Shown here: positions 4,870-42,807 of the stretch, piece by piece
How positions within the stretch are numbered: the stretch's first letter is position 1
How the letters are laid out: every line of letters starts with the position of its first letter
From: Candidatus Poribacteria bacterium
GTDB taxonomy: Bacteria > Poribacteria > WGA-4E > WGA-3G
Reading direction: 5' to 3'
Assembly (NCBI GenBank): GCA_022823085.1
Contig: JAJDXV010000076.1
Coordinates: forward strand, 1 to 42,807
DNA: 42,807 nt
Notes under the pieces: model-generated
What the model was told of the DNA's origin: nothing
Database searches by the model: none
What the model saw: the letters and a program-made list of their open reading frames with translations, nothing else
Program-made: the position numbers and the translations under genes

Positions 4870-4885
4870 TTTGAGAGGAGATTTC

Positions 4886-5923: not shown

Positions 5924-5984
5924 AAAGTTAATCTGTATTTTTCTTGTTAACATCTAACTATATAGTATTGAAGGAGATATTTTT

Positions 5985-7022
5985 ATGTATAAAACTGCGT
6001 TCTTAGGATGTGGCGGTCGCGCTCGCGCCCATGCCAGTGCCTACCGTTTTGTCAAACGTGGCAAAATCGCCGCAATCTGCGATATGAACGAAGAGCTGCT
6101 CAACAACTTTGGAGACGAATTTGATGTGTCTTCGCGTTACACCGATTTAGACGAGATGCTTGAGAAAGAGAAACCGGATGTTCTCCACATCGTCACCGCA
6201 CCGGTGCTACGTGGGACAAGTGAACGCATCCGCTATCCGCTGATGAAGCAAGCCTCCGATGCAGGGGTGCCTGCAGCAATTGTTGAGAAACCGATCGCTG
6301 TGGAAAGTGAAGATTGGAAACAGATTGCAGGGTTAGCAGAGGAGACGAAAACGAAATTTGTCGTCAATACGCAACTTAACTTCCATCCACAAAACTTAGC
6401 GTTGAAGCGGGATGTCGCGGAAGGCAAAATCGGCGAGATTAAGTTCATTGATGCCAGCGCGCGCAGTACACCGGTCGATCAGGCACCGCACGTGTTGCAG
6501 TTGGTGTCCTCCTACATCGACAATTCTCGTCCGGTACGCGTGTTGGGTCAAATCGCTGGCAGGGAGCAATTAGACTCTGCACAACCATCTCCGATGCATG
6601 CCGCCGGACAAGCCATATATGAAAACGGTCTCCATGTCTCCCTCGCATTTGGTACCGGCATGGGTACATTGGCATCTGACAGCGAGAGCAGAGTTGCACA
6701 CAAACGCGTCTTTGTCGTTGGAACAAAAGGGTTTGTGCATTGGCGGTTTAGCAGTTGGGAACGCGCAACACCGGAAGGTGGGTACGAAGGTGGACCGCTG
6801 AACTATGGCGAACAAGATATCGCTGCACAGGGGAACCTCACGGAGGCAGTCTTTGATTGGCTCGACGATGAGAACAACGTGCATCCGACGCACCTTAAGC
6901 AGTCGCTCGCCGAGTTTAATCTGCTCTTAGGACTGTATTACAGTGGGATAACGAACGAAATTATTGATCTTCCGTTTGAACCCCCTGATGGGTTGATGGA
7001 TTCGCTCCGAGAGCATTTATAA
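5985..7022 (+). CDS. Gfo/Idh/MocA family oxidoreductase, tandem paralogue 3
   Basis: Third copy of the array (345 residues), with MYKTAFLGCGGRARAHASAY at the N-terminus, an intact GCGGRA loop, the EKP motif and the common ending PFEPPDGLMDSLREHL. GAAGGAGA precedes the ATG. The intervals before and after it (61 and 211 bases) are longer than that between copies 1 and 2, and the downstream one holds a MITE-like repeat, so this copy may have its own promoter. The variable segment is SESRVAHKRVF near residues 218-230, against PGIYGHKRVF in copies 1 and 2. Cytoplasmic NAD(P)-dependent sugar or polyol dehydrogenase by family; substrate unknown. Confidence 0.88.
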   Translation: MYKTAFLGCGGRARAHASAYRFVKRGKIAAICDMNEELLNNFGDEFDVSSRYTDLDEMLEKEKPDVLHIVTAPVLRGTSERIRYPLMKQASDAGVPAAIVEKPIAVESEDWKQIAGLAEETKTKFVVNTQLNFHPQNLALKRDVAEGKIGEIKFIDASARSTPVDQAPHVLQLVSSYIDNSRPVRVLGQIAGREQLDSAQPSPMHAAGQAIYENGLHVSLAFGTGMGTLASDSESRVAHKRVFVVGTKGFVHWRFSSWERATPEGGYEGGPLNYGEQDIAAQGNLTEAVFDWLDDENNVHPTHLKQSLAEFNLLLGLYYSGITNEIIDLPFEPPDGLMDSLREHL

Positions 7023-7075
7023 ACCGACAAACATAGCGGCAGGCGAATAGTTTTCAAGCTTGTTGTTCTATGTTT

Positions 7076-7179
7076 TATAGTAAATTCTAAAAATAAATAC
7101 ACACTTTCAACCCCCCGGTAGGTGCGGTTTCCTAACCGCACCGATGCTAAGTGTATAAGTAATTGCAGGATCTACTATA
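7076..7179. mobile_element. MITE-like element, TATAGTA/TACTATA ends, GTGCGG hairpin core
   Basis: Imperfect terminal inverted repeats of about 28 bases run from TATAGTAAATTC (7076 onward) to GGATCTACTATA (ending 7179). The centre is a strong hairpin, GGTGCGGTT-TCCT-AACCGCACC (about 7119-7143). A second element with nearly the same ends but a different core hairpin lies at 27634-27758. No coding capacity is seen. Confidence 0.7.
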
Positions 7180-7233
7180 TTATTAGTTTTCATCTATTTG
7201 CTGAGTATTTTAAATATTAAAGGAGACATTTCT

Positions 7234-8271
7234 GTGTATAAAACCGCAATGTTAGGCTGTGGTGGCCGCGCCCGCGCACACGCAGATGCATACCGTTTCG
7301 TCAAAGGCGGAAAACTCGCCGCAGTCTGCGATATGAACACCGAACTGCTTAATAAGTTTGGAGATGACTTCGGCATCTCATCACGCTACACCGACTTGGA
7401 CGAGATGCTTGAAAAAGAGAAACCGGACGTTCTCCATATCGTCACCGCACCCGTCCTTCGAGGTAGCAACGAGCGTATCCGGTACCCGTTGATGAAACAG
7501 GCATCCGATGCCGGGGTGCCAGCAGCGATCGTCGAAAAACCGATTGCCGTTGAAAGCGAGGACTGGAAACAGATCTCTGAACTTTCTAAAGAGACGAAAA
7601 CAAAATTTGTCGTCAATACGCAGCTCAACTTCCATCCGCAGAACCTCGAATTGAAGCGGGATGTCGCGGAAGGCAAAATCGGTGAGATTAAATTCATCGA
7701 TGCCAGTGCACGCAGCACACCTGTTGACCAAGGTCCGCATGTGTTGCAGTTGGTGTCATCTTATATTGACAACTCGCGTCCCGTCCGCGTCCTCGGTCAA
7801 ATCTCTGGTGGCGATCACTTGGATTCAGCACAACCGTCTCCGCAATACGCGTCCGCGCGCGTCCAATACGAGAACGGACTGCACGTCTCTGTGGCATTCG
7901 GGACAGCCATCGCACCGACAGCGTCCGATGATCCGGTCGTCTTTTTTCACAAACGGGTTTTTGTCGTCGGAACGAAAGGCTTTGTACATTGGCGGTTCAG
8001 CAGCTGGGAACGTTCAACCCCGGAAGGCGGCTATGAAGGCGGACCCCTCAACTACGGTGAACAAGATGTCGCTGCACAAGGCAACCTCACAGAAGCGGTC
8101 TTCGATTGGCTTGATGACGAAAGCAAGGTACATCCGACACACCTTGAACAATCGCTCGCGGAGTTCAATCTGCTTCTCGGAATCTATTACAGCGGTATCA
8201 CCAACGAGGTGATTGATCTCCCGTTCGATCCACCTGATGGATTGATGGATCAATTGAGAGCCAAACTGTAA
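7234..8271 (+). CDS. Gfo/Idh/MocA family oxidoreductase, tandem paralogue 4
   Basis: Fourth copy. The start is taken as GTG at 7234 because AGGAGA lies eight bases upstream and the protein then begins VYKTAMLGCGGRARAH like its paralogues. An upstream in-frame TTG at 7198 would add twelve unrelated residues. The GCGGRA loop and EKP motif are intact. The C-terminal domain is the most divergent of the set in the variable segment (GGDHLDSAQPSPQYASARV, then PVVFFHKRVF), and the last residues are PFDPPDGLMDQLRAKL. The retained reading frame and catalytic motifs argue that all four copies are functional and not decaying duplicates. Confidence 0.88.
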   Translation: MYKTAMLGCGGRARAHADAYRFVKGGKLAAVCDMNTELLNKFGDDFGISSRYTDLDEMLEKEKPDVLHIVTAPVLRGSNERIRYPLMKQASDAGVPAAIVEKPIAVESEDWKQISELSKETKTKFVVNTQLNFHPQNLELKRDVAEGKIGEIKFIDASARSTPVDQGPHVLQLVSSYIDNSRPVRVLGQISGGDHLDSAQPSPQYASARVQYENGLHVSVAFGTAIAPTASDDPVVFFHKRVFVVGTKGFVHWRFSSWERSTPEGGYEGGPLNYGEQDVAAQGNLTEAVFDWLDDESKVHPTHLEQSLAEFNLLLGIYYSGITNEVIDLPFDPPDGLMDQLRAKL

Positions 8272-8318
8272 CACAAACGCCTGTCCTTCTGTCCATCTTG
8301 TCCTCCGCTTACTGTATG

Positions 8319-8383
8319 GTGAGGTATCGCGCCTCACCATCTCTATACTGTAAAGTGCCCACATATTTTCAAATTGTACTATA
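8319..8383. repeat. Intergenic hairpin and partial MITE end
   Basis: A perfect hairpin ATGGTGAGG-TATCGCG-CCTCACCAT lies near 8318-8342. It may end transcription of the oxidoreductase array, though no T run follows. Bases 8352-8383 read on the minus strand as TATAGTACAATTTGAAAATA, very like the end of the element at 27634, so this looks like one surviving end of the same MITE family. No matching second end was found upstream. Confidence 0.45.
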
Positions 8384-8390
8384 AAAAGTG

Positions 8391-8418
8391 TTGTATTTAT
8401 TTTTTTTTATGTTATAAT
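8391..8418 (+). promoter_or_regulatory. Candidate sigma70-type promoter for the secreted LamG gene
   Basis: TTGTAT (8391-8396) and a perfect TATAAT (8413-8418) are separated by 16 bases. They lie 85 bases before the start of the first LamG gene, and no other gene starts in between. Confidence 0.55.
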
Positions 8419-8502
8419 CCTTGTTTAAAATTAGGCTACAAAGCGAATACGTGTCGCGCAGAGGTCAGGGAATACATATCTGACAACACATAGGAGGTTA
8501 CT

Positions 8503-9261
8503 TTGTTAAACACAAGAATTATAACAATTACCCTCAGTTTGATGTTTACGTTGGGCATCACTTTAACTGGCTTCGCTGAGATTACCGAAGATATGATTGC
8601 AGCAGCATGGCTGTTTGACGGTGATGCTGCAGACGTTTCTGGAAACGGATTTGACGGGGAATTAAAAGGTGGTAAATTTGCCGCTGGCAAAATCGGGGAT
8701 GCCCTTGAACTCAACGGTACAACCGACTGGGTCGAAATCCCGAAACGGATCGGCGAATTTGAAGCAATTACCTTCGCACATTGGGTCAAATCCACTGGAC
8801 GGGAAGCGCAATGGCGTGTCTTCTTCAACGTCAACGGTTGGAAAGCTGGGGACATCCATTACCAAATGCACCCGAATAATAAGGTTGAGTTCTCCATTCA
8901 CAGTAACCCGGGGGGCAATGATACCTTCGCAAATTATATGTTGGCAGGCGATCAGATGGATAAGTGGGTCCACATCGCAACGGCTTATAGTGCAAAAGAA
9001 CAGAAAATCCGCTTTTACATTAACGGTGAACTCGATGTAGAAAATGATTGGGGCGGTAACCCGGGTGTCCTTGATCCTGCCCGAATCGGCGACTGGGGTC
9101 AATCGAGACAGTGGGAAGGATTGATAGATGAATTCATCATCTTCAACACCGCTCTTAGTGAAGACGATGTTCAATCCGTTATGAACGACGGTTTTGAGAC
9201 AACGCTCGCTATAGATGCCAAGCAGAAATTGGCTGTCACATGGGGAAGTTTGAAAAAATAA
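8503..9261 (+). CDS. Secreted LamG-domain protein 1 with a C-terminal WG-x-LK tail
   Basis: The TTG start at 8503 follows AGGAGG by five bases. The 252-residue protein has a Sec signal (LNTRIITITLSLMFTLGITL...GFAE), then one concanavalin A-like LamG/laminin-G domain. Recognisable pieces are AAWLFDGDAADVSGNGFDGE, GDALELNGTTDWVEI, ITFAHWVKS, KIRFYINGELD and LIDEFIIFNTALSEDDVQ. Such domains bind glycans or protein ligands at or outside the cell surface. It ends LAIDAKQKLAVTWGSLKK, a tail shared by the next two secreted proteins and the CBM9 protein. The next gene starts 14 bases later. Confidence 0.85.
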   Translation: MLNTRIITITLSLMFTLGITLTGFAEITEDMIAAAWLFDGDAADVSGNGFDGELKGGKFAAGKIGDALELNGTTDWVEIPKRIGEFEAITFAHWVKSTGREAQWRVFFNVNGWKAGDIHYQMHPNNKVEFSIHSNPGGNDTFANYMLAGDQMDKWVHIATAYSAKEQKIRFYINGELDVENDWGGNPGVLDPARIGDWGQSRQWEGLIDEFIIFNTALSEDDVQSVMNDGFETTLAIDAKQKLAVTWGSLKK

Positions 9262-9275
9262 GGGAGATTTTCAAG

Positions 9276-9983
9276 ATGAACCCTCAAAGAATATGGATTG
9301 TGAGCGTTTGTGCCGTTCTGTTGTTGCTCGGAAACGCGACAGCGAAAACACTGTTTTTTGACGATTTTGAGGGAAATGCTGAACTCGAGTGGCCCGACAT
9401 GCCGACGCTATCAGTTGAGAAAGACCCAGACAACGCAGATAACAGTGTCCTTGTCTTCGACACAACGAACGACAACAACAACGTCGATGCGCTCTTCCTT
9501 GAAGGGTTCGAGGATTTGACAGATTACACGATGCGGGCGAAATTCAACATCGTTGGCGAGACAGCAAATTTTGCAGCATTTGGTCTGATTGTACGCGCAG
9601 AGTTGGCGACGAAATACATGCTCGTCGAACCCGCACATAAGCGGTTATGTTGCGGCGATCCACGCGAAAACGTTCTCAATGTTTTTGAACGCGGTGAGGC
9701 TTGGCCCATTGTCGCTCAGGCAGATATCAATGTTGACCTCAATGAGTGGCATGAACTGTCGGTCACTGTCGAGGACAAGAAATTAACAATCTCACTTGAT
9801 GGTAAACAGATTGCTGAGTACGGTAAAGTCCCGTATCCGAAAGGTGGGTTCGGCATCCGAGAGTGGCAGTCGAAAACGCTCATCGACGATGTGGAAATCT
9901 TTGATAAGGGTGGTTCAAGCCTCGCAGTGGCACCCCACGATAAACTGACCGTTACATGGGGACTGTTGAAGTCAGCTCAATAG
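9276..9983 (+). CDS. Secreted DUF1080/3-keto-disaccharide hydrolase-like protein with WG-x-LK tail
   Basis: I start this gene at the ATG at 9276 (MNPQRIWIVSVCAVLLLLG), with AGGGAG upstream, because that gives a clean signal peptide; the open frame reaches back to 9240 inside the previous gene. The mature part (LFFDDFEGNAELEWPDM..., YTMRAKFNI, FGLIVRAE, ADINVDLNEWHELSVTVEDK, LIDDVEIFDKG) has the layout of DUF1080/3-keto-disaccharide hydrolase-type jelly rolls, which bind or cleave carbohydrate. No catalytic residues can be assigned. The tail is SLAVAPHDKLTVTWGLLKSAQ minus its last residues, the same motif as in the neighbouring LamG proteins. Probably exported and co-expressed with the gene upstream. 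Confidence 0.75.
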   Translation: MNPQRIWIVSVCAVLLLLGNATAKTLFFDDFEGNAELEWPDMPTLSVEKDPDNADNSVLVFDTTNDNNNVDALFLEGFEDLTDYTMRAKFNIVGETANFAAFGLIVRAELATKYMLVEPAHKRLCCGDPRENVLNVFERGEAWPIVAQADINVDLNEWHELSVTVEDKKLTISLDGKQIAEYGKVPYPKGGFGIREWQSKTLIDDVEIFDKGGSSLAVAPHDKLTVTWGLLKSAQ

Positions 9984-10141
9984 CCTCTAAAAACTGGATA
10001 CAGCGTAAGGACCGTAACACAACATTCTTAGCCTCTGAAGCCTGTTCCTACATGTTTGGAACCGCATTGTATATGGATGGCGGCAAACGCCGCGCCACAC
10101 CATAAACGTACACTTTCACACCCGAAACCTATAACCAGCGT

Positions 10142-10264
10142 ATGGGAAGCACCTTACTTACTGTTTTCGGGATATTCATCTTTATTGTGGGTGTCCTGAT
10201 TCTGTTCCAATTTCCCATACCTTCAACCGATCACAGGAGATTTAATTGTGTTAAGAAAAGTTAA
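10142..10264 (+). CDS. Possible 40-residue single-span membrane peptide
   Basis: The interval 9984-10247 holds this short open frame, MGSTLLTVFGIFIFIVGVLI... followed by LFQFPIPSTDHRRF. It is one hydrophobic helix with a short polar tail, and it overlaps the start of the next gene by 17 bases. No clear ribosome-binding site precedes it, so it may not be translated. The same interval also holds a GGCGG-CAAA-CGCCG hairpin near 10081. Confidence 0.25.
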   Translation: MGSTLLTVFGIFIFIVGVLILFQFPIPSTDHRRFNCVKKS

Positions 10265-11036
10265 CTTTGTGCTATTAATTTTCGGTATCACGCTCATTGC
10301 TGCGAATCTCTCTGCCCAAATCGTTGAAGACGGATTGGTCAGTTACTGGAGTTTCGACGCAGACAAAATCAGCGGAAAAAAGGTCACAGACGGAACCGGT
10401 AATTATAACGGAACTATCGGCGGTAATCTCAAGAAGGTCACTGGTAAAATCGGTGATGCGTTAGCGTTTGATGGAGACGAGACGAACTTCGTCGAAATTG
10501 ATAAACCTGAAGAGTTTGACTTCAACAGCGATTTTACATGGTCGGCATGGATTAAGACCGATAGTTCAGGTCCCGGTGTAATTTTCGCGAAAACCGGCGG
10601 TCCTGGCACTGATGATAAGGGTCCCAAAACCTTATGGGTTCGCAACGGTGTCCTTAACCTGGATACCGGTTGGGTCGGCAACGTCGCAGACACAGAAAGC
10701 ATTGCTGATAATAAGTGGCACCACATCTCTGTTGTCGGCATTCCCGAAGATAGTGCAGTCCAATACTATGTTGACGGTAAAGCGACAGGTAAAGGTGTAC
10801 TTAATCTTGCCCAATTCCCAGAAGATGACTGGGAAAACCACATTTTTATCGGCTTAGATGGCAGAGCGGATGGTGAATTCGGAGTATTTACAGGTATTAT
10901 TGACGAATTCAGCGTCTACAACCGGGTCCTCGAGGAAGCCGAAGTCAATCAGAATTTCAACGCTGACACGGGGTTGGCAGTCGATCCGAACGGGAAACTC
11001 GCTGCGACATGGGGTGCTATCAAAGCCCAACGATAG
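10248..11036 (+). CDS. Secreted LamG-domain protein 2 with a C-terminal WG-x-IK tail
   Basis: A GTG start eight bases after AGGAGA gives a signal peptide (LRKVNFVLLIFGITLIAANLS, cleavage near AQ) and one LamG domain of about 200 residues. Its segments are VSYWSFDADKISGKKVTD, DALAFDGDETNFVEI, FTWSAWIKTD, KWHHISVVG, VQYYVDGKATG and GIIDEFSVYNRVLEEAEV. The C-terminus is LAVDPNGKLAATWGAIKAQR, the tail shared with its neighbours. LamG1 and LamG2 share fold and tail, but their LamG sequences are only moderately alike. The gene lies 66 bases upstream of a DNA methyltransferase, after a GCGCGCTT-CCG-AAGCGCG hairpin near 11057. Confidence 0.85.
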   Translation: MLRKVNFVLLIFGITLIAANLSAQIVEDGLVSYWSFDADKISGKKVTDGTGNYNGTIGGNLKKVTGKIGDALAFDGDETNFVEIDKPEEFDFNSDFTWSAWIKTDSSGPGVIFAKTGGPGTDDKGPKTLWVRNGVLNLDTGWVGNVADTESIADNKWHHISVVGIPEDSAVQYYVDGKATGKGVLNLAQFPEDDWENHIFIGLDGRADGEFGVFTGIIDEFSVYNRVLEEAEVNQNFNADTGLAVDPNGKLAATWGAIKAQR

Positions 11037-11102
11037 AAACAGCAATATTCCGAATAGGCGCGCTTCCGAAGCGCGTCTACACACCGGACTATAGGAGATA
11101 GA

Positions 11103-12488
11103 ATGAAGGTTGAGAACCGAACCATCTTTGAAAACGATAACCTTCATGTACTTCGCGGGCTTGACACAAATTCTATCGACCTGATTTATCTCGATCCGCC
11201 TTTCAATTCCAACCGAACCTTTGCGGCATCAATAGGCAGTGAAGCCGCAGGGGCAACATTCAAAGATTTTTGGACACTGGAGGACCTTGACGATACGTCT
11301 CACGGTGAACTTGCAGATAGGAAACCTGAACTCTATCAAGTCATCAGTGCTGCCGAGTTTAGTCATGGGAAATCCATGAAAGCCTATCTCATCATGATGA
11401 GCATCCGGATGCTGGAGATGTTCCGAATCCTGAAACCGACGGGGACGCTTTACCTTCATTGTGATGATAACGCCAGTCATTACCTCAAAACTGTGATGGA
11501 TACCGTCTTCGGGAAAGATAACTTCAGAAACGAGATTATTTGGCAACGGGCGGCAACCACCAAAGGCAATCTCAAAAAGGGGTTGGCACGGGATTCCGAT
11601 AGTATCTTCCGCTACTCGAAAAGTGATACATACATCTGGAACGTTGAGGCGGTCACGATCCCTTACGATATGGCGAATTTGGACGCGAAAACGAAACGCC
11701 AATATTATTGTGTCGAACCGGAAACCGGACGCCGGTTCTCACTCACTTCTGTAACCGCGCAGACCCACGATCCCGATTCTCATCTGACTTATGATGTGAT
11801 GGGAATCGTCAGAACGTGGCGTTGGGCGGAAGCACGGATGCGCAAAGAGATAGAAGCCGGACGCATCGTTCAGACGCGCCCCGGAAATGTACCCCGCTAT
11901 AAACGGTATCTTGATGAACAAAAAGGGAAACGACTGAACAATATTTGGGTCGATATTCCAAATTTGACCGCCAGAAGTAAAGAGCGGATCGGATACCCTA
12001 CGCAGAAACCCATCGCTTTGTTAGAACGCATTGTTGGGGTGAGCAGCAACCCTGGCGATAGGGTACTGGATCCGTTCTGTGGGTGTGCCACAACGTGTGT
12101 GGCCGCCGAGCGGCTACAACGCCAATGGATAGGTATAGATTTAAGTCCCAAATCTTATAAACTGGCGCAGTCCCGTCTCCGACAGAGCGGTGTTGACGAA
12201 CGAATCATCCATCGGAAGGACAATCTTAAACTTTACAAACAGAAAAAAAACGATAAACACATACTCTTCGGTATTCAGGACGGTAAATGCAACGGCTGTC
12301 AAGCCGTGTTTCCGTTTCGTAGTATGAGCGTCGATTACATTGTCGCAAAATCGAAAGGCGGCACCGATGCCGCTGACAACCTTCAGTTGTTATGCAGTGC
12401 GTGCAGTTCAATCAAGAAAAATCGCACACAGAAACAATTGATTCAAAAATTAGAAAACGAAGGAGTTCTCAAATGCCAAAGGTTATGA
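11103..12488 (+). CDS. Site-specific DNA adenine methyltransferase with a degenerate C-terminal HNH domain
   Basis: The 461-residue protein has the beta-class N6-adenine or N4-cytosine methyltransferase order: motif IV DPPFNSN (31-37) near the N-terminus and motif I DPFCGCATT (323-331) near the end of the catalytic part, with YPTQKP at 298-303. A C-terminal zinc-finger HNH-like module follows: Cys396/Cys399, SVDYIVAKSKGG (409-420), NLQLLC (426-431) and Cys434. In active HNH nucleases the VDY position is normally VDH, supplying the general base, and the segment after CxxC usually has Asn; here these are Tyr412 and Ser. Methylation is probably retained while cleavage is probably lost. AGGAG precedes the ATG. 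The 3' end overlaps the CBM9 gene by 16 bases. Confidence 0.85.
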   Translation: MKVENRTIFENDNLHVLRGLDTNSIDLIYLDPPFNSNRTFAASIGSEAAGATFKDFWTLEDLDDTSHGELADRKPELYQVISAAEFSHGKSMKAYLIMMSIRMLEMFRILKPTGTLYLHCDDNASHYLKTVMDTVFGKDNFRNEIIWQRAATTKGNLKKGLARDSDSIFRYSKSDTYIWNVEAVTIPYDMANLDAKTKRQYYCVEPETGRRFSLTSVTAQTHDPDSHLTYDVMGIVRTWRWAEARMRKEIEAGRIVQTRPGNVPRYKRYLDEQKGKRLNNIWVDIPNLTARSKERIGYPTQKPIALLERIVGVSSNPGDRVLDPFCGCATTCVAAERLQRQWIGIDLSPKSYKLAQSRLRQSGVDERIIHRKDNLKLYKQKKNDKHILFGIQDGKCNGCQAVFPFRSMSVDYIVAKSKGGTDAADNLQLLCSACSSIKKNRTQKQLIQKLENEGVLKCQRL

Positions 12489-35580: not shown

Positions 35581-36405
35581 TCAATTACTCCGTGTTTGCA
35601 GACGTTCAAGTTCCGCTCGGAGTCGCGCAGCTTCTGCCTCAGCGGTTTCGGCGCGTGCCTCGGCGGTTTCGGCGCGTGCCTCAGCAGCCTCAGCACGGGC
35701 AGCTTCCTGCTGTCGTGCGATAGTTTCTACTTCGGCGCGTGCGAATGCTGACTCGGCAGGTGTCTGAAGCCAAGCCTCTCCAATTGGATCGTAAATACCT
35801 AAACCCGCAACACCGGCAGGAAAACCCGAATCGAGGGCAGAAGCGTACAGATCAGCCTCCAAGTCATCAACATGGAAATCTAAATTCAGGGCAGGGGAGT
35901 GCAGACCACCATCCACATTTTCAGCAATCGGAACGTAGAGACCATCAACCAACGTAAACGCCATCAGCGGCGTTGGCAAATACAACCCCTCAATATCACA
36001 TAAAAAGTAGTCTTGGATACCCAATGAAGCATAGAGCTCCATTTTGTGCCCTAAGTCGTTTCGGTATGTATTTTTGCTGGAGAACTCCATCACGAAATCA
36101 GGCACCTTGCCCTCTTCCCAGACGAGATAGTTCTGTCGGCGTTTCTTGCCTAAACCGAAAGCAACCAGCACATCGGGTGAAACCGATTTACGGGGGTCGC
36201 CTTCTACGTAATATAGCAGTATATCGCCGGAGACGTAGACACCCGGATCTTGTTTGAAATGTTCGTCAATGACTTGCAATGTCCAAAAAAGGATAAGTCT
36301 GTGAAGATCACTCACTGCCATCGGCTCTCCGTCTTCTTCAGGATAAAATATTGACACCTCTGTAGGAGCAGAAGGGATATGCCCCTCTTTTTTATGGATT
36401 GCCAT
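35581..36405 (-). CDS. Uma2-family (DUF820) PD-(D/E)xK nuclease-like protein with Ala/Glu coiled tail
   Basis: The 274-residue protein shows the Uma2 core: SVSPDVLVAFG with Asp78, VPDFVMEFSSKNT with Glu107 and Lys111, and KMELYASLGIQDYFLCD. These residues form the PD-(D/E)xK site of the restriction-like fold. Its function is not established; the family is abundant in cyanobacteria and related phyla. The C-terminus is a long helix of near-repeats (EARAETAEARAETAEAEAAR), probably a coiled coil, encoded by short tandem DNA repeats near 35640-35700. It is the first gene of the minus-strand run. AAAGGAGAAA precedes the ATG. Confidence 0.85.
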   Translation of the reverse strand: MAIHKKEGHIPSAPTEVSIFYPEEDGEPMAVSDLHRLILFWTLQVIDEHFKQDPGVYVSGDILLYYVEGDPRKSVSPDVLVAFGLGKKRRQNYLVWEEGKVPDFVMEFSSKNTYRNDLGHKMELYASLGIQDYFLCDIEGLYLPTPLMAFTLVDGLYVPIAENVDGGLHSPALNLDFHVDDLEADLYASALDSGFPAGVAGLGIYDPIGEAWLQTPAESAFARAEVETIARQQEAARAEAAEARAETAEARAETAEAEAARLRAELERLQTRSN

Positions 36406-36658: not shown

Positions 36659-36694
36659 TGAATTGAATAACCCTGTCGTTCTGATTCAATAGTG

Positions 36695-36723
36695 TTGACA
36701 TTTCATCTAAAAAGTGATACCGT
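36695..36723 (+). promoter_or_regulatory. Possible promoter for the dimethylformamidase-like gene
   Basis: A perfect TTGACA (36695-36700) is followed after 17 bases by TACCGT, a weak -10, 23 bases before the start codon. The site touches the right arm of the palindromic repeat. Confidence 0.35.
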
Positions 36724-36745
36724 ACATATCAAAGGAGGACGCACA

Positions 36746-38119
36746 ATGGCAACTTTAACACAGACCGAAAACCGAATCAGACCGCTCTATATTGATGGAT
36801 ATACCGATCAGTTGAGTTATACCCCCGGTGAGGAAATTGCATTCCACATCTCAACGAGTGCTGGCAGCTACTCACTTGAGATTGCACGTATCGGGGCGAC
36901 GCGCGAAGTCGTCTGGAGCCAAGCGGAACTTCCCGGTGAAGCACAACCGATCCCCGCGGATGCGTCATCGCAGGGATGTGGATGGTCACCCGTTTTTAGG
37001 CTTGAAGTCCCTGAATCCTGGCAGAGCGGTTATTATGAAGGCACACTCCGCGCAACGGACGGTGGCGGTGATTTTGTCTATCGGAACCATCGTACCGCCG
37101 AAAGCACACTTTTCTTTATTGTCCGTCCCGCGAAACCGGGGGCAAACACGCCGATTCTGCTCCAACTCTCTACCAATACCTATAACGCTTACAACAACTG
37201 GGCGGGCTTCAGTCTTTACGGATATCACGGCGCAAGTAAGATACAAGGAAACCGCGTCTCATTTGACCGACCCACTCGCGGCATTTTCGCTAACTGGGAA
37301 GCGGCTTTTGTCGTCTGGGCAGAAAAGAACGGATATACGCTGGATTACGCTGCGAACTCCGATTTGGAATTCCACCCTGAAATGTTGGAACACTACAAAC
37401 TTGTGTTGAGTGTCGGACACGATGAATATTGGTCTGCCCCGATGCGCGATCATCTTGAAGCGTTCATCGCCAATGGTGGGAACGCTGCCTTCTTTAGCGG
37501 GAATTCCGTCTGCTGGCAGGTACGTTCGGAAGATAACGGTAGGGCACTCGTCTGTTGGAAACAGACTTACAATCAAGATCCCGTCTACAAGACCGATGAT
37601 CACAGTACCCTCAGCACCCTCTGGAGCCACTATCTGGTGGATCGCCCTGAAAACCAATTGACAGGTGTCGGTTTCCTTCAAGGCGGTTATCATCTGAGTC
37701 ACGGGCAGTTTATGGATGGTGCAGGCGAATACACAGTCCATCGTCCGGAGCATTGGGTCTTTGAAGGGGCGAATCTCTCGCAAGACGACACTTTTGGTGG
37801 CGCAAATACGATTGTCGGCTACGAATGCGACGGGTGTGAGTGGACCCTTGAAAACGGTTTACCGGTACCGACCTATCGTGACGGCACACCTGAAAGTTTC
37901 ACGATCCTCGCGACCGCGCCCGTCCGATGGCATCCTGATGATTGTGAGTGGTATGAACGCTGGGAGAGAGGGAGAACCGGTGCCGCAACGATGGGCATCT
38001 ACACACAAGGCGGGACAGTCTTCACCGCCGCCACAACTGATTGGTCACACGGGTTGGCAGGTGGCGATGCCGTGGTTGAGCAGATTACCCATAACGTTCT
38101 GCAACGGCTTGTGGAATAG
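36746..38119 (+). CDS. N,N-dimethylformamidase beta-subunit-like protein
   Basis: The start is the ATG at 36746 after AAAGGAGG; the open frame extends upstream to a GTG at 36692 without a ribosome-binding site. The 457-residue protein has an N-terminal beta sandwich (YIDGYTDQLSYTPGEEIAFH) followed by the segments typical of the dimethylformamidase large subunit C-terminal domain: PILLQLSTNTYNAYNNWAG, GIFANWEAAFVVWAEKNGYT, LVLSVGHDEYWSAPMRD and NAAFFSGNSVCWQVR. The last of these belong to a glutamine-amidotransferase-like fold. True dimethylformamidase hydrolyses N,N-dimethylformamide with an iron centre; most homologues are uncharacterised. There is no signal peptide. Its 3' end overlaps a minus-strand gene by 35 bases. 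Confidence 0.8.
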   Translation: MATLTQTENRIRPLYIDGYTDQLSYTPGEEIAFHISTSAGSYSLEIARIGATREVVWSQAELPGEAQPIPADASSQGCGWSPVFRLEVPESWQSGYYEGTLRATDGGGDFVYRNHRTAESTLFFIVRPAKPGANTPILLQLSTNTYNAYNNWAGFSLYGYHGASKIQGNRVSFDRPTRGIFANWEAAFVVWAEKNGYTLDYAANSDLEFHPEMLEHYKLVLSVGHDEYWSAPMRDHLEAFIANGGNAAFFSGNSVCWQVRSEDNGRALVCWKQTYNQDPVYKTDDHSTLSTLWSHYLVDRPENQLTGVGFLQGGYHLSHGQFMDGAGEYTVHRPEHWVFEGANLSQDDTFGGANTIVGYECDGCEWTLENGLPVPTYRDGTPESFTILATAPVRWHPDDCEWYERWERGRTGAATMGIYTQGGTVFTAATTDWSHGLAGGDAVVEQITHNVLQRLVE

Positions 38120-38669
38120 GTATGCCTGTTTGTAATTTGTTATCCAGTTTCTTTTGACCAAACTTTCGTATAAGTTGAGCATGGTGAAAATCGTGACATC
38201 CACCACTATTAGTTGTATCTGTGTCCTGATCATTAGTGGACAGGCTTATATTCTGATTTATTTTTTCAGGTGTTTCCATGCGAAATCCAATCCCATAAAT
38301 TCCATGAGGTTTGCGATTCTCATCAAGACGAATTAACAAAACTCTGAGTTTTGCGATACTTTGATTTTCTTTTAACTTGAAATATAGAGATAAGATTGGT
38401 ATGCAGTCGGGGTCTTTTTCCAGTGGTGGTAAGTATATCACTTTTCCGCGTTCAGATTCTGAAAAATCCATCTCAATAGGTTCACACTTCGTTCTCGCTT
38501 GCCTAAACAACACCTCAATATCTTCACATGCCAAAGGAGGCCACTCCGCGAATATATGCTGCCAATCTTCGTTAGCCCATATATCCTTTTGACTTTTACA
38601 TAGTGGTGTGAGAATATCTTTCAAGGTGGTAATAACTTTCTGCATTGTATCTTTGTATAAAAAATTCAC
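38085..38669 (-). CDS. Unknown protein, third gene of the GHKL/receiver operon
   Basis: The GTG start at 38669 overlaps the stop of the upstream gene as GTGA, indicating translational coupling; an ATG eight codons later is an alternative. The 194-residue product is not a family I recognise. It has an N-terminal helical part (MQKVITTLKDILTPLCKSQ), a central beta part (GKVIYLPPLEKDPDCIPILS, LRVLLIRLDENRKPHGIYG) and a C-terminal HDFHHAQLIRKFGQKKLDNK. No signal peptide or membrane helix. The frame runs 35 bases into the convergent dimethylformamidase-like gene, so the original C-terminus may have been lost at the island edge. Probably an accessory or effector component. Confidence 0.65.
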   Translation of the reverse strand: MNFLYKDTMQKVITTLKDILTPLCKSQKDIWANEDWQHIFAEWPPLACEDIEVLFRQARTKCEPIEMDFSESERGKVIYLPPLEKDPDCIPILSLYFKLKENQSIAKLRVLLIRLDENRKPHGIYGIGFRMETPEKINQNISLSTNDQDTDTTNSGGCHDFHHAQLIRKFGQKKLDNKLQTGIPIPQAVAERYG

Positions 38670-39973
38670 ATTGAAAATCGGACTCGAGGGCGGTAATCAA
38701 CTTCATCAAAATATCTTACAAACCTTTGAGTGAATGGAGAGGCAGTATCAGCAAGAAACTCTTTACAATCTTCTCGATTATAGAAATAAGAAGTATCTTC
38801 ACAAAATACCCAATCCGGTTTTACAGTCAACCAAGGCTCTATTATCTCTCTAATGTGTTCACATTCGCGCAATTTATCCCAAAACCAGACAGGCCGGGAA
38901 ATCCAGTGATCTCTTGGAAATTGATAATTTTTTAGCAAGTTCGCATTAAGTTCTAATTCATTGTAACTTACCAATTGTGCTATTCTATTCCAAGTTTCGA
39001 TTTGCGTTTTGTCACCAGTAATTAAACTTGGGTACCTTGAAATCAAATGTGGGGCATCTACCAAGATGTCTTGCTCCGGCAGAACAAGATGCTCCAACCA
39101 TTTTGATATTCTAGCGGCACCAACTCTGGCTAAAACGTGATTATTAATGTCACTGTCTAAATCTTTTGCATCTTTAAGTCTCAACCCGTTTCCAGATTTT
39201 GTTATAAACTCCCGAAACGTAGTTTGAAAATGTTCTTTTTCTTTGTCTTTCCAGATAAATTGAACAATCTCCCGAGGGAGTAGTTCAAACAATTCTTTGT
39301 CAAAACCGAGAAATTCGCTAATGGATGTATCTAGCTTTCTTTGGACATCCTCTACCCTTTCGTCAAAGTCACGGAGCAAATTACATAAATTCGGCCAGTT
39401 CCAAGGTCTGAACTCTTGTTCGGAATCCTTCCAATCGCCTTTCCAGAGATTAGGGTTGTCTAACTGGTCTTCTCCTAAATTCAAATCCGCGAATGAATCC
39501 AGATCGCCTTTCAGCGTCAAATCAAAAGGATTACTACCATACTGGTTCAACCCAACAATCAACTTGCATTTTGAAAAGCATCGAACAAGATAAGCGACGA
39601 TTTCACCGGTTAAAGATCCCGTAAAGAATTCCTTCGTTTTTTCTTCTCCCCCTTTCTTTTTTTTCTTTTGACTATCCAACAGATCATAATCAATGATGAA
39701 AATTGATGCGTTATCAATTTGTTCCGCATCATCCTTTTGTTCTGCATCATCCTTGGGCATATTTTCAAGGTCTTTTTCTCCTTTCCGAAACTCAACTCGC
39801 CTCTGCTCCAACGCTTTTATTGCGTTTTGAAAATCATTATCTTTTACGAGTATAATATCAAACTTATCGCTTTGATTTGCCTGATTAAGACCCTTGTCTA
39901 ATTTTTCCTCAAATTCCTCTGGACGTCCCTGTTCATCATCGTATATCAGAATTGTAGGATTTTTCTTACTCAC
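38666..39973 (-). CDS. Receiver-like protein with an uncharacterised C-terminal domain
   Basis: I place the start at GTG 39973 (VSKKNPTILIYDDEQ): GGAGGAAA lies upstream and GTGA overlaps the stop of the ATPase gene; the open frame begins at 39988. The first ~150 residues look like a response-regulator receiver: acidic pair Asp12-Asp13 after a beta strand (PTILIYDD), a candidate phosphoacceptor Asp in IFIIDYDLLD (about 95-97), and TGEIVAYLVRCFSKCKLIVG. A charged low-complexity insert (KKKKKKGGEEK) follows the Asp. The remaining ~290 residues, with GAARISKWLEHLVLPEQDIL and VDAPHLISRYPSL, are unknown to me. No DNA-binding domain is obvious, so the output may be enzymatic or protein-protein. Confidence 0.6.
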   Translation of the reverse strand: MSKKNPTILIYDDEQGRPEEFEEKLDKGLNQANQSDKFDIILVKDNDFQNAIKALEQRRVEFRKGEKDLENMPKDDAEQKDDAEQIDNASIFIIDYDLLDSQKKKKKGGEEKTKEFFTGSLTGEIVAYLVRCFSKCKLIVGLNQYGSNPFDLTLKGDLDSFADLNLGEDQLDNPNLWKGDWKDSEQEFRPWNWPNLCNLLRDFDERVEDVQRKLDTSISEFLGFDKELFELLPREIVQFIWKDKEKEHFQTTFREFITKSGNGLRLKDAKDLDSDINNHVLARVGAARISKWLEHLVLPEQDILVDAPHLISRYPSLITGDKTQIETWNRIAQLVSYNELELNANLLKNYQFPRDHWISRPVWFWDKLRECEHIREIIEPWLTVKPDWVFCEDTSYFYNREDCKEFLADTASPFTQRFVRYFDEVDYRPRVRFSM

Positions 39974-42123
39974 TTGTCTTTCCTCCACCGAATTGAGAAT
40001 GCAGTTTTAAATCCGCGTTCTGGCTCAACAAATTGAACGCGACATCCAATATTATTTGCAAGCAGCCGAACGATCGTAAGTCCAAGTCCGGTGCCACCGT
40101 AGCCAAGAGCTTTTCTTTCAGCTGATACCTTTGATGCCCTCTGAAAGGGTTCAAAAAACTTGTCTGCATCTCTGAGGTTAATTCCATGTCCAGTATCCTG
40201 AATGAGAATTTCTTGGAATTTTTCATGGGGACGAAAACTGATGTGTAACTGGCGTTTAGGCGAATCAAGCATTGCAGTGAAAGCATTGATGAAAACGTTT
40301 TGAAAGATGGCACCCCATTCAGCGAATGAAGCCTTAGGAAGACGTAAGCGGTCATCAATTTGACTATAATCAATCTCAGTACCCCTTGCCAAGAAACTTG
40401 TTTGATCGGTAATTTCTTCAATCACTGGTCTTGCACGTAAGTTCTGCTGTAGTGTATTCTCGGTATCGGCAATGTAGTCAAACAGAAGATTCGTCGCTTT
40501 TGCTCTTTTGAGCCATGATGCTAAGCCTGCACCCAGCGATTGCAGGTTTTTCTGGAGTTCCGGATTTACTGTCTCAATCTTTGCCATTCTATCAATTGTG
40601 TCTTCAATGTAGGCAAATTGCTTTTTCAATTCATGCTGATAAGACAACGCAGAGATACCAGCTGTGGCAAGTGGAGCGAAAAGGCCCATTTGTTCAAGAG
40701 CAAGCTCCTGATCTTTCTTTGCTGCTATTGTCGCTTCTTGGACTTTTTTATAAATTTTTTGATAGACTTTTTTAGGAATTTCAGGTTCGTACTCTTCTAA
40801 CACTTGTTCAACACGCTCGAATTTTAATGATGCAGGTTCAGGTGATACTTCTTTTTCTTGAATCTTTCGCCGAGCAGATTCGTTAGCATACCAATCAAGT
40901 GCGTAACGAATTGTCTTCACAAGATCTTCATAAGCGATTGTCTCGGCTAAACGATCACGCGTGATCATAATTTTGAGATTCGGTTCATTGGAAGTGTTGA
41001 CATCAACAAATCCAAGTACACGTCCAAGGGTTGGTAAATCGTTTAAGGCTCTGAAGACTTGGATTTCCTCTGGAAGGAGTTTGGAAACATTTTGTCGATG
41101 CGAATGGTCATACTCAAGCTTCAGCCAGTCACTCTCTGATAAACCGTAATAAGGTAGGCGAAAACCTCCATCATAAACATGGACACCACCATGGTTCCTG
41201 AAATATTCCCGCGCTTCACTGACCTTGATTCCAAATTTTTGCCTGCCTGATAAGTTATAGATTCGAATCTCAAAACGACAACTATTGAGGTTCTTCGTTT
41301 TTCTGAATCCCCCATTATTATGGATAAAGTCCGCAATTTTATATTTATGAACGATTGGTTGCTCACCCACAAATTGCAAAGAAAACGTTACTTTCCCATT
41401 GTTGAGCACTCCAACAAGGCGAGCAATCCAAATGCTCTTTATTGCATTCATCTGTTTCACAAATGTCGTTGTATAGTCTCGGTGCGTTGATTGGAAGTGT
41501 ATCTTAAAAAGATCTTTTGAATCGTCCGCAGACGGAGAGGAACGGAAAGGCGGTTGGAGCCACCAGACTTCTGAAGCCAAATTGCTAATTGAATCCTCAT
41601 TCCACTCATCTTTAAGGCCATTCAAGAAAATCATCGTGCCTTGTGGAAAGGGTGGCGACGATAAATCACGGTCATACTCGTTGTAAGAAACCTCCACTTC
41701 TGTAAGTTCTTTAACTTTCATAGCTCTTTCCCAATCAACTTGGGCTTTGAGCCATTTACGGCTTTCATCTTCTGAAACTGTTTGAATCGTTAGACTCCCA
41801 GCGAGAAATTGAACCGCCAACCGCCCGACCCCTTTTGAACCTGTCATTGGCCGTTCTAAGTTTTTGGATTGTCTTTTCTCCTTTTTATGGGTTGTCCCAA
41901 TCCGCATCCAAAAGTTTTTAAACTCTTCAAAAGTCATACCGTGACCATTGTCTATAATTTCAATACGGTCTGCATTTGGCAAAAACTTAATTGTTACTTC
42001 TGTTGCATCAGCATCGTAACTATTCTTAATCAACTCAGCCAACGCTATATGAGGTTTACCAACAAGTCTTTCGCCAAGTTCTCTTAGGAGTTCAGCATCA
42101 ATTGTAAAAGGAAGTGTAGGCAT
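39970..42123 (-). CDS. Double GHKL ATPase with a histidine-kinase-like C-terminal half
   Basis: The 717-residue protein has two GHKL nucleotide-binding domains. The N-terminal one is of the Hsp90/MutL/MORC-like type: ALAELIKNSYDADA (27-40), DNGHGM (58-63) and GSKGVGR (95-101). The C-terminal one is of the histidine-kinase type: N-box NVFINAF (609-615), DTGHGI (643-648), FFEPF (655-659) and GYGGTGLG (674-681). Between them helices carry SYQHELKK with His497, placed like a phosphoacceptor H-box ahead of the kinase domain. No membrane helix or signal peptide. Such GHKL ATPases are known next to restriction-modification genes. It is coupled by GTGA to a receiver-like gene and lies 21 bases after a cytosine methyltransferase gene. 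Confidence 0.85.
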   Translation of the reverse strand: MPTLPFTIDAELLRELGERLVGKPHIALAELIKNSYDADATEVTIKFLPNADRIEIIDNGHGMTFEEFKNFWMRIGTTHKKEKRQSKNLERPMTGSKGVGRLAVQFLAGSLTIQTVSEDESRKWLKAQVDWERAMKVKELTEVEVSYNEYDRDLSSPPFPQGTMIFLNGLKDEWNEDSISNLASEVWWLQPPFRSSPSADDSKDLFKIHFQSTHRDYTTTFVKQMNAIKSIWIARLVGVLNNGKVTFSLQFVGEQPIVHKYKIADFIHNNGGFRKTKNLNSCRFEIRIYNLSGRQKFGIKVSEAREYFRNHGGVHVYDGGFRLPYYGLSESDWLKLEYDHSHRQNVSKLLPEEIQVFRALNDLPTLGRVLGFVDVNTSNEPNLKIMITRDRLAETIAYEDLVKTIRYALDWYANESARRKIQEKEVSPEPASLKFERVEQVLEEYEPEIPKKVYQKIYKKVQEATIAAKKDQELALEQMGLFAPLATAGISALSYQHELKKQFAYIEDTIDRMAKIETVNPELQKNLQSLGAGLASWLKRAKATNLLFDYIADTENTLQQNLRARPVIEEITDQTSFLARGTEIDYSQIDDRLRLPKASFAEWGAIFQNVFINAFTAMLDSPKRQLHISFRPHEKFQEILIQDTGHGINLRDADKFFEPFQRASKVSAERKALGYGGTGLGLTIVRLLANNIGCRVQFVEPERGFKTAFSIRWRKDK

Positions 42124-42144
42124 GGTTTTTATCCTTTACATTCG

Positions 42145-42639
42145 CTAAGGGACGTTTTGAAGATGGAGTTTGATGCTCTTTGCAATAACTCGGGCAAGTT
42201 TAACAGGCACTGCATTTCCGATGAACCGACTAATAGTTGTGATAGAATGTGGTTCGTCTGGGTGAACAAATTCATAGTCATCTGGAAATGTTTGGATCCG
42301 TGCAGCCTCTCTTAACGAAATTGCTCGATCCTGTTCAGGATGCCCGAATCTACCATTTCCAAAGCCACAACACTGGGTTGTGATTGTCGGAGCTGGGGCA
42401 CGCCATATCATTCTTCCATAAATAGATGAATAACTGTTGCCGCTTTCCTGTTTGTGACATCGGGCGACAAGTTCGTCGGGCCAGTCTCTCCAAGTACCGC
42501 CCTGCTTTGATGCTTTAATCCTGCGTAAGTTCAGTTCAGATAGACCAGCAGCCTTGTGATAGGGATCGTGCCAGCTTGTTTTGCCAGCCTTAAGTGCTCC
42601 TAAACCCCAAATCACATCTCCAACTCTCTTGTATTTGTT
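42145..42639 (-). pseudogene. DNA (cytosine-5) methyltransferase, C-terminal half only
   Basis: The frame encodes the target-recognition and C-terminal part of a Dcm-type C5 methyltransferase: TWRDWPDELVARCHK, APTITTQCCGFGNGRFGHPE, AISLREAARIQTFPDDY and motif X SRFIGNAVPVKLARVIAKSI. Motifs I-VIII, including the PC catalytic loop, are absent. The frame is open upstream to a stop at 42685-42687, but homology ends near 42639, where sequence resembling a transposon right end begins. A GTG at 42615 could start a 156-residue protein, which would be inactive alone. The missing half may lie beyond the window on the other side of the insertion. Confidence 0.75.
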
Positions 42640-42665
42640 TTGATGCCTATTTGAGCGTTTTTCCC

Positions 42666-42806
42666 TTATTGACCGCTCTCCGCCCTAAAGGACGGAGATT
42701 CTTCTCTGTCCAAGATATTAGGGTTTAGCGCGACTGCCATCTGCAGTTTCTCGCTATGGAGCCATCTCCAACCACTTGGCGTTGGTTCTCCGATCAAGTC
42801 GGAGCA
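42666..42806 (-). CDS. C-terminal end of a TnpB-like protein (IS200/IS605 family), partial
   Basis: A minus-strand frame open at the window edge encodes 46 residues, CSDLIGEPTPSGWRWLHSEK...ending DREESPSFRAESGQ, with the stop at 42666-42668. The last residues are read across a CTCCG...CGGAG hairpin, as happens at the 3' ends of IS605-type tnpB genes, whose transcript end also makes the guide-RNA scaffold. This is inference from the tail and hairpin; the catalytic RuvC part lies outside the window. Confidence 0.45.
   Translation of the reverse strand, partial: CSDLIGEPTPSGWRWLHSEKLQMAVALNPNILDREESPSFRAESGQ
42678..42697. mobile_element. Right-end hairpin of an IS200/IS605-type element
   Basis: CTCCGCCCT and AGGACGGAG (42678-42697) form a stem with one mismatch and a two-base loop. 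Hairpins reading CTCCGTCCTTTAGGGCGGAG are characteristic right ends of IS200/IS605 elements. The element boundary should lie between here and about 42640. Confidence 0.5.
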
Positions 42807-42807
42807 A

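What the first reader, a model, noticed from the sequence alone, without database searches (positions are those of the whole stretch)
38085..42639. Two-component-like GHKL/receiver operon beside a cytosine methyltransferase
Three genes are joined by two GTGA overlaps: a soluble protein with two different GHKL ATPase domains and an H-box-like His497, a receiver-like protein with an unknown 290-residue output domain, and a small unknown protein. They follow a Dcm-type methyltransferase by 21 bases, and the block is visibly A+T-rich compared with its surroundings. Sensor kinases and receivers are known in some anti-phage systems, and MORC/Hsp90-like ATPases occur in restriction operons. I do not know a described system in which both ATPase types are fused in one protein coupled to this receiver and methyltransferase.
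Basis: partly seen in the sequence, partly recalled or inferred. Interest (0 to 1): 0.88.

Follow-up and report, generated by a model that had tools for sequence, protein, structure and literature searches.

The report
Phosphorelay-wired restriction-type defence operon
A DNA-methylating gene stands beside a predicted sensor kinase, its predicted receiver partner and a small unknown protein; the same gene set recurs in distant bacteria and an archaeon and would likely act as a signal-relay form of virus defence, although the methylating gene and the small gene are both incomplete in this genome.

Summary
The genes are real: a 717-aa protein with two different GHKL ATPase domains and an invariant His-Glu, a receiver-like protein, and a third, short protein (SMALL). 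The kinase-receiver-methyltransferase-Vsr association was published in 2021 (HEF_HK/Response_reg_2; PMC8011034), so the headline novelty is lost. The window's set is a divergent branch of that kind: Response_reg_2 is not detected, HEF_HK is below cut-off, the receiver has Asn where Thr is usual and no conserved Lys, and SMALL is always present. The trio recurs in 12 of 12 related loci from seven phyla, archaea included; a cytosine methyltransferase accompanies 9 and Vsr 6. SMALL has invariant P, R, E, H and Q, a fairly confident model and no fold match.

The block adjoins a gene carried by 37 of 38 genomes of the genus; 16 flanks examined lack it, so it looks inserted. Best reading: a methyltransferase-linked defence module in which a MutL/MORC-like ATPase likely drives a His-Asp relay. 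Phosphotransfer, effector and defence are untested.

The parts
42669..42807 (.). End of a repeated, probably IS200/IS605-type element that interrupts the methyltransferase gene; the contig ends inside it
   Evidence: 139-140 bases at 97-100% identity at 4 other places in the genome; weak sub-threshold Rfam sot0042 match at 42677-42727 (28 bits, cut-off 88). The element type is recalled from the hairpin; no call names it.
42145..42668 (-). C5 cytosine methyltransferase, C-terminal part only (ORF 42145-42615; homology from about 42642)
   Evidence: PF00145 64.3 bits, profile 218-323 of 324; 79% identity to residues 187-350 of the intact L010 protein; in-frame stop upstream
39970..42123 (-). 717-aa GHKL/histidine-kinase-like protein
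41701..42051 (-). N-terminal GHKL (HATPase_c_3, MutL/MORC/HgiDII-like), residues 25-141, with invariant Glu30, Lys33, Asn34, Asp58, Gly60, Gly62, Lys97, Gly98
   Evidence: PF13589 103.6 bits; BbrUII/HgiDII family match over residues 6-182, 98.1 bits; invariant columns
40528..40659 (-). H-box (HEF_HK-like) segment, residues 489-532; His497 codon at 40633-40635
   Evidence: PF19191 18.1 bits, cut-off 24.1; His497-Glu498 in 16 of 16 rows
39982..40308 (-). C-terminal kinase-type HATPase_c, residues 606-714
   Evidence: PF02518 69.2 bits; N609, N613, D643, G647, G677, G679, G681 invariant
38666..39973 (-). Receiver-like protein (435 aa from GTG 39973; 440-aa ORF from 39988). Residue numbers here follow the 440-aa ORF: D17, D18 and D100 invariant, N148 in place of Thr, no conserved Lys at 149-200
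38085..38669 (-). SMALL, third gene of the module, 194 aa here (listed relatives mostly about 220-260 aa); C-terminal ~50 residues missing, divergence from relatives at about 38130
   Evidence: model positions 1-170 of 232 matched
38175..38195 (-). SMALL motif His-x3-His-x-Gln (residues 159-165)
   Evidence: HxxxH[AV]Q in 112 of 120 listed relatives, 0 of 240 GHKL/receiver relatives; H163 and Q165 invariant

Best explanation
This is an incomplete, apparently inserted copy of a recurring three-gene module (a predicted kinase with two ATPase domains, a predicted receiver, and SMALL) that usually travels with a cytosine methyltransferase and likely works as a restriction-type defence in which recognition of DNA would be passed to an effector by a His-Asp relay. 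Proposed steps. (1) The methyltransferase would mark self DNA (inferred from the family). (2) The N-terminal GHKL domain, of the MutL/MORC/HgiDII type and with its ATP-site residues intact (shown), would close on DNA or a protein-DNA complex and sense an unmarked or foreign state (inferred). (3) This would drive autophosphorylation of His497 by the C-terminal kinase-type ATPase (residues shown, activity inferred). (4) The phosphoryl group would move to Asp100 of the receiver protein (acid triad shown, fold predicted, transfer inferred). (5) The receiver's output half and SMALL would carry out the response; SMALL, with its invariant Arg, Glu, His and Gln, is my candidate for a catalytic effector (weakest step). 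In the window itself the kinase and receiver genes are open, but the methyltransferase and SMALL are incomplete, so this copy probably does not work as a full system.
For: Gene order GHKL-receiver-SMALL in 12 of 12 loci that a receiver or kinase search brought in, from Poribacteria, WOR-3, Chloroflexota, Pseudomonadota, Aenigmatarchaeota, Elusimicrobiota and Actinomycetota; the kinase or receiver is there by selection, the other genes are not. C5 methyltransferase with 9 of 12 and Vsr with 6 of 12. One group in the kinase tree, 100/100. His497-Glu498 and both sets of ATP-binding residues invariant in 16 of 16. D17, D18, D100 in 66 of 66. Predicted receiver fold. N-terminus matches a restriction-enzyme family, and an HgiDII-like GHKL gene beside a methyltransferase lies in the same genome. 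Sporadic distribution: 4 of 84 genomes of the phylum, own included; 1 of 301 in a Chloroflexota sample, the hit being L014's own genome. Block A+T-rich and absent from the same flank in 16 of 16 relatives examined. Published enrichment of R-M genes around the related HEF_HK/Response_reg_2 pairs (PMC8011034).
Against: No protection, phosphotransfer or nuclease activity is shown for this clade in anything I read. The receiver has Asn for Thr and no conserved Lys, which usually take part in the phospho-switch (recalled; PMC8011034 reports both as kept in its family). The receiver fold rests on a model; Foldseek gave no match at E 0.001 or better. No Pfam nuclease match in the three proteins (SMALL of L014). 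SMALL has no fold match. No methyltransferase was found in the held flanks of L011 and L012 (both flanks are short on one side). SMALL is not universal in the wider family: L052, L053, L054 and L056 have none.
Confidence: 0.45

Rival explanations
1. Regulatory two-component system: the kinase and receiver control the expression of the neighbouring methyltransferase or R-M genes rather than acting on invading DNA, as the CapK/CapS kinase-repressor pair does for other immune operons.
For: PMC8011034 speculates about signalling that controls R-M systems; CapK/CapS is a tested GHKL-kinase precedent, with 88 of 443 capKS loci downstream of a predicted R-M system (PMC13373217, passages seen); methyltransferase position varies around the constant trio.
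Against: No recognised DNA-binding domain in the receiver protein (20 members, E up to 10) or in the window's SMALL; an intact MutL/MORC-type ATPase seems unneeded for simple transcription control; the trio also occurs without a visible methyltransferase (L012).
Confidence: 0.22
2. Pseudo-receiver machine: the protein works as a MutL/MORC-like DNA clamp with two ATPase domains, and the receiver protein is a non-phosphorylated adaptor; no relay occurs.
For: The Thr position is Asn in 66 of 66 rows and no position from 149 to 200 has Lys in more than 22 of 66 rows (strand order); no Response_reg or Response_reg_2 profile match; high conservation of the whole receiver protein (67% mean column identity among 34 rows) suits a fixed complex.
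Against: His497, Glu498 and the acid triad D17/D18/D100 are strictly invariant; the C-terminal ATPase matches sensor kinases such as PhoR and PnpS (44.1 and 43.5 bits, below their cut-offs).
Confidence: 0.22
3. Repair system: the MutL-like ATPase with Vsr and a cytosine methyltransferase repairs T:G mismatches from deaminated 5-methylcytosine, without any defence role.
For: Vsr with 6 of 12 loci, in three of them in one gene with the methyltransferase; MutL match on the N-terminus.
Against: No Vsr seen in the other 6 of 12, some of them contig-limited; a kinase and receiver are not part of known very-short-patch repair (recalled); sporadic, apparently inserted distribution is unlike a housekeeping repair gene.
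Confidence: 0.06
4. Selfish remnant (may hold together with any of the others): in this genome the block is a decaying mobile R-M cassette with no present function.
For: Methyltransferase cut by a repeated element; SMALL truncated; no near-identical 5' half of the methyltransferase found in the assembly.
Against: Kinase and receiver frames are open and their key residues are kept; the missing halves may be an assembly matter (181 contigs, 91.8% complete).
Confidence: 0.3

Closest known systems
HEF_HK / Response_reg_2 two-component-like pairs (Bellieny-Rabelo et al. 2021, PMC8011034; PF19191, PF19192)
   Same: HATPase_c_3 + H-box + HATPase_c in one protein, next to a receiver-like protein; C5 methyltransferase and Vsr nearby
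   Different: PF19192 not detected in any of 20 members at E up to 10; PF19191 below cut-off in the window protein; receiver protein 392-440 aa here against 555-617 aa in the PF19192 loci L052-L054; Asn for Thr and no Lys; extra third gene SMALL; separate kinase group at 100/100
paraMORC / MORC ATPases of R-M operons (Iyer et al. 2008, PMC2292703, passages seen)
   Same: N-terminal MutL/MORC-type GHKL in an R-M-like setting with cytosine methyltransferase and Vsr
   Different: fused to a kinase half with its own GHKL and His, not to a nuclease or TIR domain and not with a helicase gene
BbrUII/HgiDII family restriction enzymes (NF050001)
   Same: N-terminal GHKL (98.1 bits over residues 6-182)
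   Different: only the first ~180 of 659 profile positions match, far below the cut-off of 550 bits; the rest of the enzyme is absent. A fuller HgiDII-like gene (339.6 bits, residues 38-669, also below cut-off) is elsewhere in the same genome, L008
CapK/CapS and VapK/VapS/VapC (PMC13373217, passages seen)
   Same: GHKL kinase + phosphorylated partner, with an immune operon or toxin downstream
   Different: STAS/serine substrate, not His-Asp; no second GHKL described in the passages
GHKL-Shedu VcSduA, formerly paraMORC3 (PMC12137116, passages seen)
   Same: N-terminal GHKL; a variant meant to stop ATP hydrolysis (E27A) lost phage defence
   Different: nuclease DUF4263 in the same chain; no such match here
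Detocs (recalled; the papers listed were not opened)
   Same: kinase and receiver proteins in defence, as recalled
   Different: no methyltransferase, MutL-type GHKL or SMALL, as recalled; not compared here

Membership tests
HEF_HK / Response_reg_2 pair | N-terminal HATPase_c_3 and C-terminal HATPase_c in one protein | tested here: met
   103.6 and 69.2 bits
HEF_HK / Response_reg_2 pair | HEF_HK (PF19191) over its curated cut-off | tested here: not met
   18.1 bits against 24.1; Paraburkholderia relative 17.1
HEF_HK / Response_reg_2 pair | Core His followed by an acidic residue before HATPase_c | tested here: met
   His497-Glu498, 16 of 16 rows
HEF_HK / Response_reg_2 pair | Adjacent protein with Response_reg_2 (PF19192) | tested here: not met
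   none of 20 members at E up to 10; no match in the whole genome at E up to 1
HEF_HK / Response_reg_2 pair | Receiver fold with acid pair and phospho-Asp | tested here: met
HEF_HK / Response_reg_2 pair | Conserved Thr (strand 4) and Lys (strand 5) of the receiver | tested here: not met
   Asn148 in 66 of 66; highest Lys count at any position 149-200 is 22 of 66; strands assigned from the model
HEF_HK / Response_reg_2 pair | C5 methyltransferase nearby | tested here: met
   9 of 12 related loci, two of them by annotation only; in the window only a fragment
HEF_HK / Response_reg_2 pair | No transmembrane segment | not tested
   no topology tool run
BbrUII/HgiDII restriction enzyme | Full-length match over the curated cut-off | tested here: not met
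   98.1 bits of 550, residues 6-182 only
paraMORC | GHKL followed by S5 domain in an R-M operon | tested here: inconclusive
   GHKL met, methyltransferase context met; S5 not tested
Shedu (VcSduA type) | C-terminal DUF4263 nuclease | tested here: not met
   no such Pfam match at E up to 1
CapK/CapS | STAS domains in kinase and substrate | tested here: not met
   no STAS match at E up to 1 in kinase or receiver protein
Functional two-component relay | Phosphotransfer from His to Asp | not testable with these tools
   needs biochemistry
Anti-phage defence system | Protection against phage | not testable with these tools
   needs plaque assays. PADLOC gives the kinase protein only weak matches (REase_II 38.2 and 36.3 bits, MzaB 15.9, PbeC 6.6) and none to the receiver protein or SMALL

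The most novel reading that the evidence does not exclude
A cross-domain (bacteria and archaea) restriction-type immune system in which the usual direct coupling of a MutL/MORC-type DNA-sensing ATPase to a nuclease has been replaced by a His-Asp phosphorelay that fires a new enzyme family, SMALL (invariant Arg-x-Glu ... His-x-Gln, on two strands of an unmatched fold).
Probability: 0.25. Interest if true: 0.85.

Novelty: new variant of a known kind. Interest (0 to 1): 0.55.

Why it matters
The 2021 report left open what the HEF_HK/receiver pairs do beside R-M genes and which protein carries out the response. This branch adds a conserved third protein with an invariant residue set, an altered receiver and a spread into candidate phyla and an archaeon. 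That gives a compact set of three genes plus methyltransferase with point mutants that separate the relay, scaffold and regulation models. If the relay model held, it would be a restriction-type system wired through two-component signalling.

Tried and rejected

The L010 methyltransferase as a tblastn query did not find the methyltransferases of L024 and L025 at E 1e-5, so these two rest on their records' annotation.

Literature searches behind 'not found in print': (held open library only). PMC8011034 was read in parts 1-5 of 7 plus a term search ('phage' 0, 'third gene' 0 occurrences in the main text). PMC2292703, PMC12137116, PMC13373217 and PMC13092281 were seen as passages only. The last has a figure legend that lists HATPase and REC among abbreviations of predicted defence systems; I could not see which genes, so it may or may not be this kind.
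Full report
What is there. The window is one whole contig of a 5.2-Mb draft genome. Its closest named relatives are Candidatus Poribacteria. On the minus strand, in reading order, lie: the end of a repeated element (42669-42807), a C-terminal part of a C5 cytosine methyltransferase, a 717-aa kinase-like protein, a receiver-like protein and a 194-aa protein. I call the last SMALL. The first of them implies that the receiver gene starts at 39973, which agrees with the starts of most relatives in the alignment.

The kinase protein. Its first ~180 residues match the HATPase_c_3 domain and, in NCBI's models, restriction enzymes of the BbrUII/HgiDII family and MutL. Its last ~110 residues match sensor-kinase ATPases such as PhoR. 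Between them is a weak HEF_HK match, below that family's cut-off. In an alignment of 16 proteins, the other 15 being 22 to 73% identical to ours, His497-Glu498 and the ATP-binding residues of both domains are invariant, including Glu30 of the N-terminal domain. That Glu30 is the catalytic base of hydrolysing GHKL ATPases is recalled from MutL and gyrase. I take it as the counterpart of E27 in VcSduA, whose E27A variant lost phage defence (PMC12137116, passage); I did not align the two.

SMALL. The protein search found 143 relatives, 120 of them listed. Of those 120, 112 carry H-x3-H-[AV]-Q, against 0 of 240 listed kinase and receiver relatives. In 93 aligned rows two P, one R, one E, one H and one Q are invariant. 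The model is fairly confident (pLDDT 81.1), but fold searches found nothing convincing. In the model, R122-x-E124 and H155-x-Q157 (P0242 numbering) lie on strands 116-124 and 155-159. An active site there is a guess.

Recurrence. A pattern-based scan of 84,980 species genomes found 10 loci (a lower bound), and plasmid records gave two more. All 12 have kinase, receiver and SMALL in this order. SMALL is found by BLAST in 7 of the first 10. In L015, L016 and L018 it rests on position and on the invariant residues in the alignment. In the two plasmid loci a profile that did not contain them finds it (E 2.4e-7 and 1.7e-15). L013 and L011 are cut by their contig ends. The Ornithinimicrobium copy (L025) is in pieces in its record and was read as pieces; in L024 the receiver is taken from the record's annotation and. 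A C5 methyltransferase accompanies the trio in 9 of 12: L010, L014, L015, L016, L017, L018 and L019, and by annotation L024, two small genes away, and L025. None was found in L011, L012 or L013 with the L010 protein as query; L013 is too short to judge, and the flanks of L011 and L012 are short on one side. Vsr is seen in 6 of 12: L014 and L015 separate, L016 and L019 in one gene with the methyltransferase, L025 by annotation, and L024 inside its annotated dcm gene (tblastn E 2.3e-20).

Relation to what is known. PMC8011034 (2021) described this kind of kinase with a neighbouring receiver-like protein (Response_reg_2), 91.6% linkage in 644 regions, and enrichment of C5 methyltransferases, type II R-M genes and Vsr. 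In what I read it states no phage test and no third component (parts 1-5 of 7). I searched its receiver family in 369 genomes around the Accumulibacter relative and found four matches, three over cut-off. Those three loci (L052-L054) have methyltransferase, kinase (991-1003 aa) and receiver (555-617 aa), L054 also Vsr, and no SMALL. The fourth (L055), below cut-off, lies next to another kinase-like ORF that matches our profile only at 50.5 bits. A second Accumulibacter locus, L056, has a kinase, a protein that reads like a receiver, Vsr and a methyltransferase, again without SMALL. In a tree of 22 kinases the 12 rows of our branch (window, L010-L019, L024) form one group at 100/100; all 200 bootstrap trees hold it. 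The next rows, with weak support and long branches, are Paraburkholderia and Hymenobacter. Their third genes carry H-P-[IL]-[FY]-H-[AV]-Q, although sequence comparison gives no significance. I therefore do not file the window's set as a member of PF19191/PF19192, but as a new variant of the kind they describe.

State in this genome. The methyltransferase keeps only residues matching 187-350 of 351. Its 5' side runs into a repeat with four more copies. No near-identical 5' half was found in the assembly; the best other match is a full paralogue at 52%. SMALL diverges from its relatives at about residue 180 and lacks the last ~50 residues. Its end overlaps the 3' end of a gene (36692-38119) that 37 of 38 genomes of the genus carry, own included. 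I looked at the 3' flank of that gene in 16 of the 36 others; none of the 16 holds the trio (about 6 kb each, one only 1.5 kb). In L012, which matches genome G043 of another genus (L020), the trio also sits convergent to this gene. A conserved ~455-aa gene that follows the first gene directly in four empty flanks (L109-L112) lies on the other side of the trio there, one gene further (read by eye). G057 and G077 carry the trio on other contigs than this gene. The block thus looks like an insertion, in keeping with its A+T-richness and its rarity: 4 of 84 genomes of the phylum, own included.

Mechanism. Shown: domain make-up, invariant residues, gene linkage, the two breaks, absence from related flanks. 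Predicted: receiver fold and SMALL fold. Inferred: insertion, DNA sensing by the first ATPase, His-to-Asp transfer, effector role of SMALL, defence. I favour the relay-effector model because His497, the acid triad and both ATPase sites are kept through wide divergence and across archaea and bacteria, because the trio is constant while the methyltransferase's place and form vary, and because the N-terminal domain is the one used by GHKL restriction enzymes. The main result against it is the altered receiver switch, which keeps the pseudo-receiver rival alive. The same genome also holds an HgiDII-like GHKL gene overlapping a methyltransferase gene (L008) and a distant kinase-receiver pair beside ORFs that by eye resemble type III R-M genes (L007), so several solutions to the same coupling problem may coexist there.

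Noticed in passing
L007 (G000:C12:28000-47000), ORFs 8078-10252 and 10249-11304: A second, distant two-ATPase kinase (724 aa) overlapping a 351-aa protein with a weak Response_reg match (18.5 bits, below cut-off), followed by ORFs that by eye read like type III Mod and Res; its nearest relative in the tree is an Enterobacter mori plasmid copy.
   Followed up: partly
L008 (G000:C77), 4232-7298: C5 methyltransferase overlapping a 679-aa HgiDII/BbrUII-like GHKL gene (339.6 bits, below the 550 cut-off).
   Followed up: partly
L009 (G000:C173): A 529-aa GHKL gene near ORFs that by eye resemble DndC/DndD-type phosphorothioation genes and a PLD-like protein (names recalled, not tested).
   Followed up: no
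L010 10969-12638: Directly after SMALL, with overlapping ends, come a 236-aa protein without a significant Pfam match and an N4/N6 methyltransferase (101.8 bits): possibly a second R-M pair added to the operon.
   Followed up: no
L024 4092-5756: The annotated dcm gene of the Mycolicibacterium plasmid locus contains a Vsr-like stretch at 4176-4496 (tblastn E 2.3e-20), so methyltransferase and Vsr seem fused there too, in the other order than in L016 and L019.
   Followed up: no
window 35581-36405: Uma2-family protein (57.7 bits) with a C-terminal Ala/Glu/Arg-rich heptad-like tail.
   Followed up: no
window 42669-42807 and G000 C55, C72, C60, C160: Repeated element end, 97-100% identical in five places; around the C60 copy no ORF recognisable to me as a transposase was seen, so it may be a short non-autonomous element.
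   Followed up: partly
L026 9277-9954 and L028 9342-10211: Third genes of two distant kinase-receiver loci carry H-P-[IL]-[FY]-H-[AV]-Q like SMALL; H-x3-H-x-Q occurs in 5 of the 161 ORFs listed, four of them third genes.
   Followed up: partly
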